Of a stretch of DNA of 38,025 bases, positions 7,466 through 37,271 are shown in pieces. The notes beneath the pieces are model-generated. The model made no database searches. It had not been told where the DNA came from and saw nothing but the letters and a program-made list of their open reading frames with translations. Source of the DNA: Armatimonadota bacterium (GTDB taxonomy: Bacteria > Armatimonadota > JAAZEB01). Both the position numbers and the translations under genes were made by a program. The DNA lies in the NCBI GenBank assembly GCA_012512505.1, contig JAAZEB010000335.1:1-38025 (forward strand), written 5' to 3'. Numbering within the stretch: position 1 is the first letter of the stretch; every line of letters starts with the position of its first letter.

Positions 7466-7797
7466 GAAACGACGATCCTCTCCTGGGTCATCGGCTCGCC
7501 AGGCGTTGCTCTGACAGCCACCGGTTTGTAAAACCTGCGCCGGGTATGGCCCGTCAAACGGACGATCCACCACACTGCCGGAACACGCACAGCACGCGCG
7601 CGTGCTTAACCTTTCTTCTTCGGGGGCGCCTTTTCGACTCCTGCCGCCGCGAAGCCACGGAGCTCCGTTTTTTTTTCGCGGCGGACTGCCGGGCGGTCGG
7701 TGGCCGGGCAGGAAGCGCCCGCGAATCCATGGAACAGACTGGCGGGCGGCTGGCGCCGCGCCGCGCGGAGTGCCCGTCTGTCTACTGAAGAGTCTTG
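7466..7797. other. Divergent intergenic region between aminotransferase and UBL-TIR genes
   Basis: This 332-base gap separates two diverging genes, so promoters for both should lie here, but I see no clear -35/-10 pair. Its notable element is the nested hairpin with a T tract at 7644-7684, listed separately. Short open frames in it lack ribosome-binding sites and conserved features, and I do not call them. Confidence 0.5.
7644..7684 (+). terminator. Nested hairpin with nine-T tract upstream of the UBL-TIR gene
   Basis: Outer arms CCGCCGCGAA (7644-7653) and TTCGCGGCGG (7675-7684) enclose an inner palindrome ACGGAGCTCCGT (7657-7668) that runs straight into nine T (7668-7676). If the inner hairpin forms, it plus the T tract resembles an intrinsic terminator; if the outer one forms, the T tract is enclosed. 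The two are sterically exclusive in part, so an attenuator for the gene starting at 7798 is possible. The inner stem is short, so this is tentative. Confidence 0.4.
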
Positions 7798-8613
7798 ATG
7801 CCGAGGGGGTTACTGCCTTTGTCGAAGCTGACGGTGACGGTGATGCTGCCGGATGGCCTGCGTCAGGAGACCACCCAGGTTGCCAGTAACGAGCCGTCCG
7901 GTGAGGTGGCGCGAATGCTGGCCCAGACGCTGAAGCTCCGCGAGGCCCAGGATGCCACCCTCGCCTGGCACTTCGTCAACTCGCTCAGCGGCCGGCCGAT
8001 CCCCCCCGACGTGCCGCTGGCACGCACTGGCCTGCGGCCCGGCGGTGCCTTGCGACTGGTGCCCGGACCGGCGCCCACCACCGCCCGACCGTCGGTCCTG
8101 GCGCCGCCGCGCGCGCACCCCGCTGCCGCGAACCCACCCTCCACGCCCCCGGACGTGGTCCTCTGCAGCGCGGCTACACACAAGCCGCTCGCCGAGGCGG
8201 TGGGCCGCTGGCTGGAGCAGCAAGGGCTTGCCTGCTGGGTCGCGACGCGAGACGGCCGGCCCGGGGCGCCGTTCCCCACGCTGGCCGCGGCCCTCCGACA
8301 GTGCCACCTGGCGGTCGCGGTGCTGGACGCCGACAAAGGACCGGCCACCGACCTTCTCACGCAGGTGATCCGGGCGCTCACCCTCGGCGCCACGGTGGTG
8401 CCGGTGCGCGTGAGTGACGCCGGTCTCCCCCTGGAAGGCGAAGCCCGCCTCGCCGCGATCCGCCGGGCCGTGCGCCTGGAGGGGGAGACGCCCCCGCCCG
8501 CCACGGACGACCCGCCAGAGGGGGACGACGGCGACCTGGACGAGCGCCTTGCTCGCCTCAAGGCGGTCGCCGAAGCCCTGGAAGAGTGGCCCACCGAGGG
8601 CGGGGAGCCGTAG
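7798..8613 (+). CDS. Fusion of YukD/ubiquitin-like domain and TIR-like domain
   Basis: A 271-residue cytoplasmic protein. Residues 9-90 look like a YukD/EsaB-type ubiquitin fold: 'LTVTVMLPDG' (strand 1), a helix 'SGEVARMLAQTLKL', 'WHFVNSLSGRPI', and 'LARTGLRPGGALRLVPG' (final turn and strand). Residues 91-118 are a Pro/Ala linker. Residues 119-228 match a bacterial TIR domain: strand A 'DVVLCSA', 'LAEAVGRWLEQQGLACWV', a BB-loop-like 'RDGRPGAPFPTLAAAL', strand D 'LAVAVLDADKG', then 'VVPVRVSDAGLP'. The residue aligned with the conserved helix Glu of TIR NADases ('REVERA') appears to be Gln189 ('TQVIRA'), so NADase activity is doubtful. The tail (229-271) is acidic and helical. ATG at 7798 follows GAAGAG; a TTG directly before it is an alternative. 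No other defence gene is adjacent. Confidence 0.65.
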   Translation: MPRGLLPLSKLTVTVMLPDGLRQETTQVASNEPSGEVARMLAQTLKLREAQDATLAWHFVNSLSGRPIPPDVPLARTGLRPGGALRLVPGPAPTTARPSVLAPPRAHPAAANPPSTPPDVVLCSAATHKPLAEAVGRWLEQQGLACWVATRDGRPGAPFPTLAAALRQCHLAVAVLDADKGPATDLLTQVIRALTLGATVVPVRVSDAGLPLEGEARLAAIRRAVRLEGETPPPATDDPPEGDDGDLDERLARLKAVAEALEEWPTEGGEP

Positions 8614-8638
8614 GTATCGCCGGTCGCCCCTTGGCCTG

Positions 8639-8906
8639 GCGTAGGAGGGGGCTCCGACCCCAATACCAACGCCCCTTGGCATCGGAGACGCCTACCCTGG
8701 AAACAGCCTCTTGCGGCCGGCGGCGGTTTGGAGAGCCGCGAACCGTACGCGAATCGTAGGGGCGAAGCATTGGTGGGTCAAGCGTACTGTACCGCACTCG
8801 GTCCGGCCCGCCAATGCTTCGCCCCCTACCACTGCCCAGAGACCCGCGAACCCCCGGCGTCGGATGCCTCCTACGGTGGCCGGCGAGACGCCGGCGATCC
8901 GACCGC
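8639..8906. repeat. Modular palindromic intergenic repeat, locus II, with an inserted hairpin element
   Basis: The 317-base gap 8614-8930 holds no gene. At 8639-8696 is a module starting GTAGGAGGGGGCTCCGACCC and ending in the mirror 'CATCGGAGACGCCTACC'; at 8857-8906 is the module with 'GATGCCTCCTACGG' and the CGCCGGCG core. Both match modules at loci I, III, IV and V. Between them lies a different hairpin element (8756-8829). Confidence 0.8.
8756..8829. repeat. Hairpin element, GTAGGGGCGAAGCATTGG type
   Basis: Arms GTAGGGGCGAAGCATTGG (8756-8773) and its near-complement CCAATGCTTCGCCCCCTAC (8811-8829) pair with one bulged base around a 37-base interior. The arm sequence closely resembles interspersed hairpin repeats that I recall as abundant in cyanobacterial and Chloroflexi intergenic DNA. 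It encodes nothing. Confidence 0.75.
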
Positions 8907-8930: not shown

Positions 8931-11276
8931 CTAGGAATAGGTAAGCAGGCAGGTGGCGGTACAGGCGACACTGGCGCGAACGCGCAGCCAGTGGGCGTTG
9001 TAGCCGTTCGGGAAGCGGTGGCGCACGCTGCCGCCGGCGGGCACCGTGAAGCGCCGGTAGACGCTCCATTCACCCGTGGCCAGGAAGTCGACCTCCACCG
9101 TGAACTCCACCGGCTGCCCGGCATCGTGGGAGAGCTCCAGGAGCTTGTGGTCGAAGCCGGTCATCAGGTAGGGATCGGAGGGGTCGTCGGCGCGCACCGG
9201 GGTTTGGTACCAGGGACCTCCCTGGCCGCGCGGCTTGCCCAGGCGCCACAGGTCGTCCACGGTGCCAAACCACAGCGCGGCCTCTCCATCCACCGCGCGG
9301 AAGTGGTGGGCGTCGGCGGGAGCCTCGGTGCGCGTGCCGGCCAGGACGAGCAGCCCCCGCCAGGAGCAGAAGTCGGTGATGCGCCGACGATGGGTGCAGA
9401 CGGGGCGCATCGCGGCCAGGCCGCCTGAAGAGAGGCGCGGCACCTCGTAGAACGTGCCCTGGCAGTTGAGGAGGGCGCGCTCGGTGACCACCTCGCGCAG
9501 GCCGCGCGGCCAGCCGGTGGGCCAGGGTTGCGCGTAGGCCGGATCCCCCTTCGGGAGCCGGTAGCGCCGCCCCTCCGCGTCGGTCAGCAGCACCGACGCC
9601 GCGTCGATCACGAAGTCCGGCTCGGTCACGGCCGCGTGCTGCCGCAGCCAGGCGCTGGCGTTGGCGTCTTCCACCTGGCGCAGGCGCAGGTCTCCGTCGA
9701 TCTCATAGTAGCGCGGCTCGCCGGCGTGTTCTCCCTGCACCCGCTGGGCAAGGAACTGGAGACTGGTGCGGTCGCCTCCCATGGGGCGCACCAGGCCGCC
9801 CACCCAGGGCGCGTCGCTGTCCACTTCGGCGAGCGCCTCGAAGCCGGCCGGCCGCCGCTTCGCCCCCGGCGAGGCGTAGTGACAGTAGGCCGTGGCCTCG
9901 CACTCGCGGTTGGCCCGCACGCGCAGCCACTCGGCGCTGGTGCCGCGCGGAAAGACATGGAACGCGTAGCCACAGCCGGGCACTGAGATGGAGCGGTAGG
10001 GCTGCCAGGTGCCGTTGCCGCTGCTATCCAGCTCCAGGGTGAAGGTGACCGGCTCGTCGCTTTCGTGGCGCAGGTGCAGCACCCGCTTGCCAAAGCCGGC
10101 CAGCAGGTACGGGTCAGACGCCTCCCCGGCGGCGACGTGGGTGTGGACCCACGGCCCGCCGAAGCCGGACGGCCGGCCCAGCCGGGTCAGCTCCGTCATC
10201 GGGCAGAACCAGAGGTTCGATTGCGGCCGGCCGGCCAACGGGTTGTCGAAGAGCGACGTATCGTTGCAGGCCAGCACCAGCCGCCCCTGCCAGGCGCAGA
10301 AGTCGACCACCATCTTCAGGTAGGTGCTCAGTGGCCGGAGGCCGCCGGTGCTGCCGCGCCGGAAGCCGGCCGGGAAGCGGTAGAACATGCCGTGCATCGT
10401 CATCAAGACGCGCCCCGGGACGACTTCTCGAATGCGCGGCCACTCGGTGTGCCAGCCGTGCCCGCCGTCGTAGGTATAGCTGGCTTTCGGCAGGCGGAAA
10501 GTGTGCCACTCACCTTGATCCAGCAGCTTCAGCAGCACCGAACGCTCGTCCCAGCCGGTAGCCCAGATCGGGGCGTCGTCGGCCGCCGCTCCCTGCACGT
10601 CGCCCGGGCCGGTCACCTCGCAGAACTGCTTGCGCTCGATCAGGCGCCAGCGCGTGCCGTCCCACTCGACCAGTGCCCCGGTTTCGCCCCGGTAGCGGTG
10701 GTCGCGCTGCCAGCGGTCGTACCAGCCCCACTCGCCGTTGTTCGCCACCACGATGCGGCCCTGGCTAGTCCATCCCCCCTTGGCGTGCGAGCCGGGAACG
10801 GTGTGCGCCTCCCAGAGGCGCTCCACGGCCAGGGTGTGCACGTCCACCTCGTACAGCTCGCCCTCCATGCCCAGGAAGTAGACCTTGTTCGCGGGGTCCG
10901 TGAGGTGGCGCAGCGTGGCGGTGTGCCGGCCCGGCATGTGGTTGTAACCCACGGCGCGCACGTGGCCGGCCGCGCTGATGAAGTAGGGGCCGAGGATGAG
11001 CTGGTTGGACTCGCGGTGGATCAGGCGGTTGGCCGGCGTGCCGCCGATGCTCTCGGGATGCACGACGGGGGTCAGCGTCTCATCCAGCGAGACCAGGCGG
11101 TCGTTGCTCCCTTGCGGTTGGTGCGAGCTGTAGGTGACCAGCCAAAGGCGGCCCGCCCAGGGCACCACCGCTCCGATTCCGGTCTCGTCTACGCTGCCAA
11201 AGAGCGCCAGGTGGGGGTAGATGCCGCTGATGCTGACCGGCGCCGCCGACCTGTCCACGTCTGCGGGGATAGGCAT
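8931..11276 (-). CDS. Internally duplicated 781-residue protein of unknown function
   Basis: No signal peptide or membrane segment is visible, so it is probably cytoplasmic. The N-terminal part (1-280) has beta-propeller-like strands ('GRLWLVTYS', 'GRIVVANNGEWGWYDRW'). Residues about 279-468 and 590-781 are homologous halves: DFCAWQGRLVLA/DFCSWRGLLVLA, LTRLGRP/LWRLGKP, SDPYLLAGFGKRVLHL/SDPYLMTGFDHKLLEL, EWLRVRA/HWLRVRA. Each half joins propeller-like strands ('ALWFGTVDDL') to a small beta-sandwich-like end ('EFTVEVDFLATGEWSVYRRFTVP'). I know no function; conserved proteins of this type in polysaccharide-degrading bacteria are annotated hypothetical. The start ATG has GAGGAG 7 bases upstream. 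It lies 205 bases downstream of the dioxygenase gene on the same strand. Confidence 0.8.
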   Translation of the reverse strand: MPIPADVDRSAAPVSISGIYPHLALFGSVDETGIGAVVPWAGRLWLVTYSSHQPQGSNDRLVSLDETLTPVVHPESIGGTPANRLIHRESNQLILGPYFISAAGHVRAVGYNHMPGRHTATLRHLTDPANKVYFLGMEGELYEVDVHTLAVERLWEAHTVPGSHAKGGWTSQGRIVVANNGEWGWYDRWQRDHRYRGETGALVEWDGTRWRLIERKQFCEVTGPGDVQGAAADDAPIWATGWDERSVLLKLLDQGEWHTFRLPKASYTYDGGHGWHTEWPRIREVVPGRVLMTMHGMFYRFPAGFRRGSTGGLRPLSTYLKMVVDFCAWQGRLVLACNDTSLFDNPLAGRPQSNLWFCPMTELTRLGRPSGFGGPWVHTHVAAGEASDPYLLAGFGKRVLHLRHESDEPVTFTLELDSSGNGTWQPYRSISVPGCGYAFHVFPRGTSAEWLRVRANRECEATAYCHYASPGAKRRPAGFEALAEVDSDAPWVGGLVRPMGGDRTSLQFLAQRVQGEHAGEPRYYEIDGDLRLRQVEDANASAWLRQHAAVTEPDFVIDAASVLLTDAEGRRYRLPKGDPAYAQPWPTGWPRGLREVVTERALLNCQGTFYEVPRLSSGGLAAMRPVCTHRRRITDFCSWRGLLVLAGTRTEAPADAHHFRAVDGEAALWFGTVDDLWRLGKPRGQGGPWYQTPVRADDPSDPYLMTGFDHKLLELSHDAGQPVEFTVEVDFLATGEWSVYRRFTVPAGGSVRHRFPNGYNAHWLRVRASVACTATCLLTYS

Positions 11277-35283: not shown

Positions 35284-35318
35284 GCGGCGCGGCCCGAGCC
35301 GGCCGGCGGCGCCGCTCA
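35281..35318. terminator. Bidirectional hairpin spanning both convergent stop codons
   Basis: TGAGCGGCGC (35281-35290) pairs perfectly with GCGCCGCTCA (35309-35318), and the 18-base interior can pair further (GGCC/GGCC). The outer TGA is the lipoprotein stop codon and the opposite TCA is the stop codon of the dehydratase on the other strand, so the two stop codons pair with each other. There is no T tract on either side. Confidence 0.7.
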
Positions 35319-37271
35319 AGACCGGGTGGCGGTAGCGGGCTCGTCGGCCGGACGAGTGGGCGCGGTAGCGGCCGCCGGAGTGGGGGCGGGTGGCTGGAAC
35401 TCCGGCACCAGCACGGTGAGCAGGCGGCGGATCTCGTCGGCACGCAGGTGGCGGGCGGCCTCCGCCATCTGAGTGATGCCCTGCTGCAGTTGCTCGGGCG
35501 CGCCATGGGGGAGGGCGCCGTTGCGCAAAACGAAGATCCGGTCGTGGGGGGTGGTATCGTAGTGCTCGGTATCGAGGCACAGCTCCTCGTAGAGCTTCTC
35601 GCCCGGGCGGATGCCGGTGAACTCGACTTCGATGTCAACGCCGGGCCTCAGGCCGGAGAGCTCGATCAGGTCATGCACCAAGTCGACGATTCGGACCGGT
35701 TCGCCCATATCGAGCATGAAGATCTCACCGCCGCGGCCGAGGACGGCCGCCTGGAGCACCAACTGCACCGCCTCGGGGATCGTCATGAAGTAGCGGCGCA
35801 TGTCGGGGTGGGTGACGGTGACCGGGCCGCCAGCGGCGATCTGCTCGCGGAAGATTGGCACGGCGCTGCCGCGGCTGCCTAGCACGTTGCCAAAGCGGAC
35901 GGCGACGTAGCGCCGGCCGGTACGCGCGGCGAACTGCTGCACCAGCATCTCTGCCACCCGCTTGGTGGCGCCCATCACGCTGGTGGGGTTGACCGCCTTG
36001 TCGGTGGAGATGAGGACGAAGCGCTCGACATCGTGTTCCTCGGCGGCGCGCAGCACGTTGCGGGTGCCGAGGATGTTGTTGGTGACAGCGTCCTCGACGT
36101 TCCATTCCATCAGGGGCACGTGCTTGTGGGCCGCGGCATGGTAGATCGTGCGCGGCCGGTGCTGGCCTACCACCCCCATCACGCGGTCCAGGTCACGCAC
36201 GTCGGCGATCACCGGCTTCAGAGGCACCTGGGGGAAACGCTGGCGCAGTTCGCGCTCGATGGTAAAGATGCTGTACTCGCCGCGCCCGAGTAGCACCAGC
36301 AGGGAGGGGCCCTGAGCGGCCACCTGCCGGCACAGCTCGCTGCCGATGGAGCCGCCGGCACCGGTCACCAGCACGCAGGTGCCGGTGATCGAGGCCTTCA
36401 CCTCGGCCTGGTCGGTTTGGACGGGGTCGCGGCGCAGCAGGTCCTCGATGCGCAGTTCGCGCAGTTGGCGTACGGCGGGCATTCCGTCCAGCACTTCGTG
36501 GATGCTGGGCAAGGTGCGGAACGGCAGCTTGGCCTCGATGCAGAGGTGGCGCAGCTCCCGGAGCGTGGTGCCCGATGCCGAGGGCATGGCGATCAGCACC
36601 TCGTCAATCTGGTAGTTCCTGGCGATCTCCGGGATCTGCGCTCGTTCGCCAAGCACCGGCACGCCATGGATCCGCTTGCCAAACTTGCTCCCATCATCAT
36701 CCACGAGGCCGATGGGCACCATGCCGCAGTCACGGTTCTGTTGCATCTCGCGCACGGCGCGGGCCCCGGCATCGCCGGCGCCGACCACCAGCATTCGTCG
36801 AACTGCTGGCCGGGCGACGAACATCGGCGCCACGCGGCGGCTGCGGTTGGAGAGGCGTTCCTGCAGCAGGCGCAGGGCCAGCCGGCTGGCGGCGAGCAGA
36901 CCGAGATTGAGCAGCCCATCCAGGAGGACGACGGAGCGCGATACCGTGTGCGCAATCCCGAGGAGGGGAAGAACGGCGAAGTTGAGCAGGAAAATGGCGG
37001 CCGTGCTGGCGGCGCTGACGCCCAGGATGCTGCGCAGTTCGCGGGTGCTGGCATAGCGCCAGAGGTGATGATAGAGGCCGAAGACGGAGTAGAGCGGCAG
37101 GCGCACTGCCAGCGAGAGGAACAGCAGGTTGCGGTTGCCCTCCAAGAAGGGCCACAGGCCGCTGTCTGGCTCGAAGCGGATGGCCAAGCTAACGCCGTAA
37201 GCCAGCAGGATGCACAGGACATCGACGGCGACGGCGTAGCGAATCCGGAGCGTGAGAAAAGGTAAAGACAT
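35316..37271 (-). CDS. Membrane-bound nucleoside-diphosphate sugar 4,6-dehydratase, FlaA1/CapD/PglF family
   Basis: A 651-residue protein. Four membrane helices (about residues 10-130) are followed by a Rossmann-like region (LVVGAGDAGARAVREM, 161-176) and the SDR catalytic domain: TGAGGSIGSE (303-312), 'YHAAAHKHVPLME' (377-389), 'ISTDKAVNP' (421-429, Thr-Asp-Lys catalytic trio) and 'VMGATKRVAE' (432-441), where Met replaces the usual Tyr of YxxxK as in this class. It likely converts UDP-GlcNAc (or a related sugar) to the 4-keto-6-deoxy form for surface glycans. The sugar transferase upstream on the same strand, 178 bases away, is a usual partner. A C-terminal tail rich in Pro/Ala/Thr is atypical. 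The start has no clear SD. Confidence 0.95.
   Translation of the reverse strand: MSLPFLTLRIRYAVAVDVLCILLAYGVSLAIRFEPDSGLWPFLEGNRNLLFLSLAVRLPLYSVFGLYHHLWRYASTRELRSILGVSAASTAAIFLLNFAVLPLLGIAHTVSRSVVLLDGLLNLGLLAASRLALRLLQERLSNRSRRVAPMFVARPAVRRMLVVGAGDAGARAVREMQQNRDCGMVPIGLVDDDGSKFGKRIHGVPVLGERAQIPEIARNYQIDEVLIAMPSASGTTLRELRHLCIEAKLPFRTLPSIHEVLDGMPAVRQLRELRIEDLLRRDPVQTDQAEVKASITGTCVLVTGAGGSIGSELCRQVAAQGPSLLVLLGRGEYSIFTIERELRQRFPQVPLKPVIADVRDLDRVMGVVGQHRPRTIYHAAAHKHVPLMEWNVEDAVTNNILGTRNVLRAAEEHDVERFVLISTDKAVNPTSVMGATKRVAEMLVQQFAARTGRRYVAVRFGNVLGSRGSAVPIFREQIAAGGPVTVTHPDMRRYFMTIPEAVQLVLQAAVLGRGGEIFMLDMGEPVRIVDLVHDLIELSGLRPGVDIEVEFTGIRPGEKLYEELCLDTEHYDTTPHDRIFVLRNGALPHGAPEQLQQGITQMAEAARHLRADEIRRLLTVLVPEFQPPAPTPAAATAPTRPADEPATATRS

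What the first reader, a model, noticed from the sequence alone, without database searches (positions are those of the whole stretch)
7798..8613. Ubiquitin-like (YukD) and TIR-like domains fused in one protein
Seen: strand/turn patterns of a YukD-type beta-grasp domain at 9-90 and of a TIR domain at 119-228, joined by a Pro/Ala linker, with an acidic helical tail. Known: TIR domains serve as NADases or signalling scaffolds in bacterial immunity; ubiquitin-like domains occur in conjugation-like and type VII-associated systems. Inference: a UBL moiety presented to a TIR, possibly as a scaffold, would be a new architecture. The helix Glu of NADase TIRs appears replaced by Gln189, pointing away from catalysis.
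Basis: partly seen in the sequence, partly recalled or inferred. Interest (0 to 1): 0.72.

Follow-up and report, generated by a model that had tools for sequence, protein, structure and literature searches.

The report
Ubiquitin-like domain fused to degenerate TIR
One uncultured bacterium carries an unusual small protein that joins a ubiquitin-like domain to an immune-type TIR domain which has lost its key catalytic residue, so it is probably a connector protein rather than an enzyme; no second copy was found anywhere searched.

Summary
The 271-aa ORF at 7798-8613 (+) contains an N-terminal ubiquitin-like (UBL) beta-grasp domain (residues ~10-90), a Pro/Ala linker, and a TIR domain (~119-233). 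Both were tested by profile with shuffle controls, by structure prediction, and by fold search against the PDB. The UBL's detected relatives are not type-VII-secretion YukD proteins. They are highly conserved stand-alone UBLs ending in ...PEITAG, encoded in operons with E1, JAB, E2 and RING genes. These occur in other families of the same phylum, in Phycisphaeraceae and in a Solirubrobacteraceae genome. The window's copy keeps the fold positions but none of 9 conserved polar positions, and it lacks the terminal Ala-Gly. Its own genome shows no other UBL of this family and only MoeB-type E1s. The TIR has Gln189 (CAG) where all 11 aligned relatives have Glu; the same Glu-to-Gln change was used as the catalytic mutant of ThsB. 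It also lacks other conserved TIR residues. Most likely it is a non-conjugated, non-enzymatic adaptor. No second UBL-TIR protein appeared among about 1,080 genomes of three phyla searched with the UBL profile, nor in phage, plasmid or viral collections. Neighbours are metabolic. It is a new domain combination of known parts; as a singleton its function is unproven.

The parts
7798..8613 (+). ORF of 271 aa, UBL-linker-TIR-acidic tail (alternative TTG start at 7795)
7825..8067 (+). UBL beta-grasp domain, residues 10-90
   Evidence: profile without own copies E 3e-6; AF2 pLDDT 80.8; Foldseek ubiquitin/ISG15/TmoB/EccD5
8068..8151 (+). Pro/Ala-rich linker, residues 91-118; no terminal Ala-Gly after the UBL
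   Evidence: 17 of 28 residues Pro/Ala; relatives end ..TAG/..VAG
8152..8496 (+). Degenerate TIR domain, residues 119-233
   Evidence: Pfam TIR_2 E 6.5e-7; alignment A3; AF2 and Foldseek
8362..8364 (+). Codon 189, CAG (Gln), at the position of the catalytic Glu of TIR NADases
   Evidence: PMC10022894
8482..8610 (+). Acidic tail, residues 229-271, with a predicted helix
   Evidence: 14 D/E, 3 K/R; helix in low-confidence part of model

Best explanation
It is a soluble, non-enzymatic adaptor. The UBL descends from the modifier of a bacterial ubiquitin-like pathway but is now locked at the N-terminus of a fusion. It serves as a non-covalent docking domain, because its C-terminus runs into a linker and the Ala-Gly end is gone. 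The TIR is a pseudo-enzyme that would act by binding or assembling with a partner, as scaffold TIRs do. Shown by sequence and structure prediction: the two domains, loss of the catalytic Glu, loss of the UBL's terminal Ala-Gly, absence of another such UBL in the genome, and detected E1-like genes of MoeB type only. Inferred: that the protein is expressed, that it lacks NADase activity, and that it works by binding. The partner is unknown.
For: Gln189 replaces Glu found in 11/11 aligned TIRs, and other conserved sites are changed too (Ser177 to Asp, Ser183 to Ala, Trp226 to Arg; 20 of 45 conserved columns kept). Mutating the Glu abolishes NADase in SARM1 (PMC8635717), and E85Q was used as the catalytic mutant of ThsB (PMC10022894). 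The UBL keeps 5/8 hydrophobic and 4/9 Gly/Pro conserved positions but 0/9 polar ones, and lacks the terminal Ala-Gly. Two domains of intact predicted fold are joined by a flexible linker, with no transmembrane segment. Scaffold TIR assemblies are an established class. Ubls and effectors tied together by adaptor domains are described in bacterial conflict systems (PMC7159879).
Against: It is a singleton, so conservation and selection cannot be tested. No partner lies beside it; the neighbours are sugar and metabolic genes, and PADLOC shows nothing convincing. No second TIR_2 protein above cut-off is in the genome, so a TIR-TIR partner would have to be of another TIR family or the protein itself.
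Confidence: 0.45

Rival explanations
1. A decaying, non-functional fusion: a TIR gene captured a UBL and is drifting, with no current role.
For: No orthologue in the two other genomes of its class and none beside the 56%-identical P0002 orthologue in G001; degenerate at conserved sites of both domains; no partner.
Against: The frame is open over 271 codons with coding-like GC by position, and both folds are still recognisable well above shuffles.
Confidence: 0.25
2. An active enzyme that uses another acidic residue (such as Asp185, one helical turn before Gln189) to cleave NAD+ or another nucleotide.
For: Asp185 lies four residues before Gln189 in or beside the predicted helix; the conserved Cys-Trp and Arg-Asp..Pro-Gly motifs are kept.
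Against: All 11 relatives use Glu at 189; the Ser177, Ser183 and Trp226 positions are changed too; an E-to-Q change was the catalytic mutant of ThsB.
Confidence: 0.12
3. An immune effector regulated by a ubiquitin-like pathway: E1/E2 or JAB enzymes recognise or cut the UBL to release the TIR.
For: The UBL's relatives sit in E1/JAB/E2/RING operons; EAD-Ubl and effector links are described (PMC7159879).
Against: Only MoeB-type E1s were found in its genome, with one partial Prok-JAB match at a contig end; the conserved polar positions and the Ala-Gly end are lost.
Confidence: 0.08

Closest known systems
Stand-alone YukD-fold UBLs of bacterial E1/JAB/E2/RING operons (Prok-RING_1, UQ_con, ThiF)
   Same: Homologous beta-grasp domain, 12-28% identity in the alignment (25-29%)
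   Different: Those are single-domain proteins ending in ITAG/VAG inside an operon; this one is fused, lacks the end and has no operon
Bacterial TIR_2 proteins (relatives of the same phylum; NADase TIRs such as ThsB, AbTir)
   Same: TIR fold, Cys-Trp and Arg-Asp..Pro-Gly motifs; 24-32% identity to the phylum's TIRs
   Different: Catalytic Glu replaced by Gln and other conserved residues lost; N-terminal UBL
Scaffold TIR adaptors (MyD88, MAL)
   Same: Proposed mode: TIR without catalysis, fused to another interaction domain
   Different: They pair with death or membrane-binding domains and TIR receptors; no partner known here
EAD-Ubl plus EAD-effector conflict systems (Kaur et al. 2020, PMC7159879; and PMC8195603)
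   Same: Links between ubiquitin-like domains and immune-type effectors in bacteria
   Different: There the link is an EAD domain and a conjugation system in one locus; here a direct UBL-TIR fusion without a system
UBL-JAB-TM-LysM fusions in family f35 of the same phylum
   Same: N-terminal UBL of the same family used as part of a larger protein
   Different: The partner part is a JAB peptidase plus membrane anchor, not a TIR

Membership tests
TIR domain (Pfam TIR_2) | Sequence match above curated cut-off | tested here: met
   30.3 bits, cut-off 28
TIR domain (Pfam TIR_2) | TIR flavodoxin-like fold | tested here: met
   AF2 core pLDDT about 81-90; nearly all top PDB hits are TIRs, global TM only 0.4-0.5 with the tail included
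TIR NADase | Catalytic Glu in the helix after the S-rich loop | tested here: not met
   Gln189 against Glu in 11/11
TIR NADase | NAD+ cleavage | not testable with these tools
   needs an assay
Ubiquitin-like beta-grasp (YukD/UBL) | Profile match | tested here: met
   E 3e-6 with a profile free of own copies; Pfam PF08817 itself does not report it
Ubiquitin-like beta-grasp (YukD/UBL) | Beta-grasp fold | tested here: met
Bacterial UBL modifier of an E1/E2 pathway | Free C-terminal Gly (..TAG/..VAG) | tested here: not met
   window runs on into the linker
Bacterial UBL modifier of an E1/E2 pathway | Dedicated E1 beside it or in the genome | tested here: not met
   only MoeB-type E1s found; genome 97% complete
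YukD of type VII secretion | Neighbouring ESAT-6/FtsK-type genes | tested here: not met
   no such gene among the window genes scanned; rest of the genome not searched for them
Thoeris or other known TIR defence system | Partner gene (ThsA etc.) adjacent or PADLOC match | tested here: not met
   only PycTIR at E 0.034; neighbours metabolic

The most novel reading that the evidence does not exclude
A direct ubiquitin-like/TIR fusion in which a former modifier became the fixed recognition arm of a pseudo-enzyme TIR: a bacterial adaptor linking ubiquitin-like and TIR signalling in one protein.
Probability: 0.3. Interest if true: 0.65.

Novelty: new variant of a known kind. Interest (0 to 1): 0.45.

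Why it matters
Ubiquitin-like systems and TIR domains are both central to immunity in eukaryotes and both have bacterial roots, but in the bacterial literature found here they meet only in multi-gene loci. A direct fusion with a dead TIR would suggest that bacteria also build MyD88-like connector proteins, using a ubiquitin-like domain. The weight is limited because only one copy is known and nothing shows that it is used.

Tried and rejected
Relatives of the whole protein: none in genome contigs, viral contigs, plasmids or phages; the plasmid and phage tblastn searches found not even TIR domains, so they are insensitive. Type VII secretion reading rejected: relatives sit with E1/JAB, and the actinobacterial hits of the UBL profile other than the Solirubrobacteraceae one are weak and mostly 390-560 aa frames, as expected of EccD proteins (not inspected one by one). 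Possible UBL-TIR look-alikes with open frames of about 260 aa (G046, G213) turned out to be stand-alone UBLs in a long open frame. Long frames in planctomycete hits (L125, L134, L147) look like upstream non-coding extensions of stand-alone UBLs. My first UBL profile test (61.9 bits, E 8.6e-19, and its UBL shuffle control) and the conservation count were contaminated by a copy of the window protein in locus L153; discarded and replaced. The TIR part is unaffected. Antisense ORFs at 7810-8682 and 7863-8669 (-) are mirror frames of high GC; the homology evidence is all on the + strand.

Full report
What is there. The ORF at 7798-8613 (+) encodes 271 residues with coding-like base composition by codon position. 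Pfam finds TIR_2 at residues 120-211 (E 6.5e-7, above cut-off) and nothing significant in the N-terminal half. A search of 291 genomes of the same phylum showed that the N-terminal half matches small 90-120-residue proteins in several genomes and the C-terminal half matches TIR proteins.

N-terminal half. The small relatives are YukD-type UBLs (PF08817, E 1.9e-16 on one of them). A profile made from 61 such domains, with all copies of the window protein removed, finds only the window ORF among 368 ORFs (E 3e-6) and scores 24.2 bits against 6.9 for the best of 2000 shuffles. An earlier version of this test was contaminated by the protein's own copy and is discarded. AF2 gives pLDDT 80.8 with strand-strand-helix-strand-strand order, and Foldseek against the PDB returns ISG15, SUMO, ubiquitin, TmoB and the UBL of EccD5. 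The alignment given to AF2 held 12 homologues, so the model is not independent of the homology claim.

Where its relatives live. In families f40-f45 of the phylum the stand-alone UBL is typically followed by a ThiF-type E1, with JAB peptidases, a UQ_con E2, a Prok-RING_1 protein and a trypsin-like protease nearby. The same UBL-E1-JAB order is found in two Phycisphaerales genomes and one Solirubrobacteraceae genome. Nearly all of these UBLs end in TAG or VAG, some with a short extension. Such bacterial pathways, and YukD, were described by Iyer et al. 2006 (PMC1779556); that paper does not mention TIR domains. The window's UBL keeps fold positions (5/8 hydrophobic, 4/9 Gly/Pro) and none of 9 conserved polar positions, has no Ala-Gly end and runs into a Pro/Ala linker. 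Its genome shows no other UBL of this family, only MoeB-type E1s and one partial Prok-JAB match at a contig end. On present evidence it is unlikely to act as a classical modifier.

C-terminal half. Against 11 TIRs of the phylum it keeps the Cys-Trp and Arg-Asp..Pro-Gly motifs but has Gln189 in place of a Glu present in all 11, and Asp177, Ala183 and Arg226 in place of invariant Ser, Ser and Trp; 20 of 45 conserved columns are kept. A profile of these TIRs scores it at 54.1 bits against 7.2 for the best shuffle. The AF2 model is good in the core and poor in the tail; nearly all top PDB hits are TIRs. Mutation of the Glu abolishes NADase in SARM1 (PMC8635717), and a Glu-to-Gln mutant served as the catalytic mutant of ThsB (PMC10022894). 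Catalysis is therefore unlikely, though not tested.

How rare it is. No UBL-TIR protein turned up in 291 genomes of the own phylum, in 392 genomes of the planctomycete phylum, or by the UBL profile in 397 genomes of the Solirubrobacteraceae phylum (there the one strong hit is the stand-alone UBL that brought the genome in). With many genomes only the best 13-18 candidates per genome were scored, so a very divergent case could be missed. The other two genomes of its class have no match. In G001 the gene next to it (8931-11276) has a 56% identical orthologue, but a different gene, apparently a NUDIX-type one, stands where the UBL-TIR would be. The conserved neighbour argues that the contig belongs to this organism. 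The phylum is probably Armatimonadota, judged from a prepilin typical of it (L166) and from memory only.

Neighbourhood. Divergent DegT aminotransferase, Gfo/Idh oxidoreductases, PhyH oxygenases, nucleotide-sugar enzymes and sugar transferases; no recognised defence gene, no type VII secretion gene among those scanned.

Mechanism. Most likely a non-enzymatic adaptor with a locked UBL (0.45). Rivals: decaying fusion (0.25), enzyme with another acid (0.12), effector controlled by a ubiquitin-like pathway (0.08). The closest concept in the literature is the EAD-linked Ubl and effector systems of Kaur et al. 2020 (PMC7159879) and a 2021 paper (PMC8195603). Literature searches found no report of a direct UBL-TIR fusion, but the library lacks most subscription journals, including a key 2011 RING paper.

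Noticed in passing
L034, L035, L038, L042-L046 (genomes G250-G290): Ubiquitin-like operons (UBL, E1, JABs, and in some E2, Prok-RING_1 and a trypsin-like protease) with UBLs of near-ubiquitin conservation within the group, ending in PEITAG.
   Followed up: partly
L090-L095, L099 (family f35): UBL-JAB fusion proteins of about 400-430 aa with a transmembrane segment and LysM-like C-terminus.
   Followed up: no
L143:8695-9642: 315-aa planctomycete protein with N-terminal UBL, helical region and transmembrane segment.
   Followed up: no
L004/L053:9418-10212: TIR protein with a C-terminal phosphopantetheine carrier domain (PF00550), next to a second gene with TIR and TPR-like repeats.
   Followed up: no
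L051:9681-11876: TIR apparently fused to an FtsK-like ATPase (by eye, no family search).
   Followed up: no
window 8931-11276 (-): 781-aa protein with no Pfam or NCBIfam match, two similar halves by eye, 56% identical orthologue in G001.
   Followed up: partly
window 35316-37271 (-): PseB-like nucleotide-sugar dehydratase with an extra N-terminal region, in a sugar-polymer gene group.
   Followed up: no
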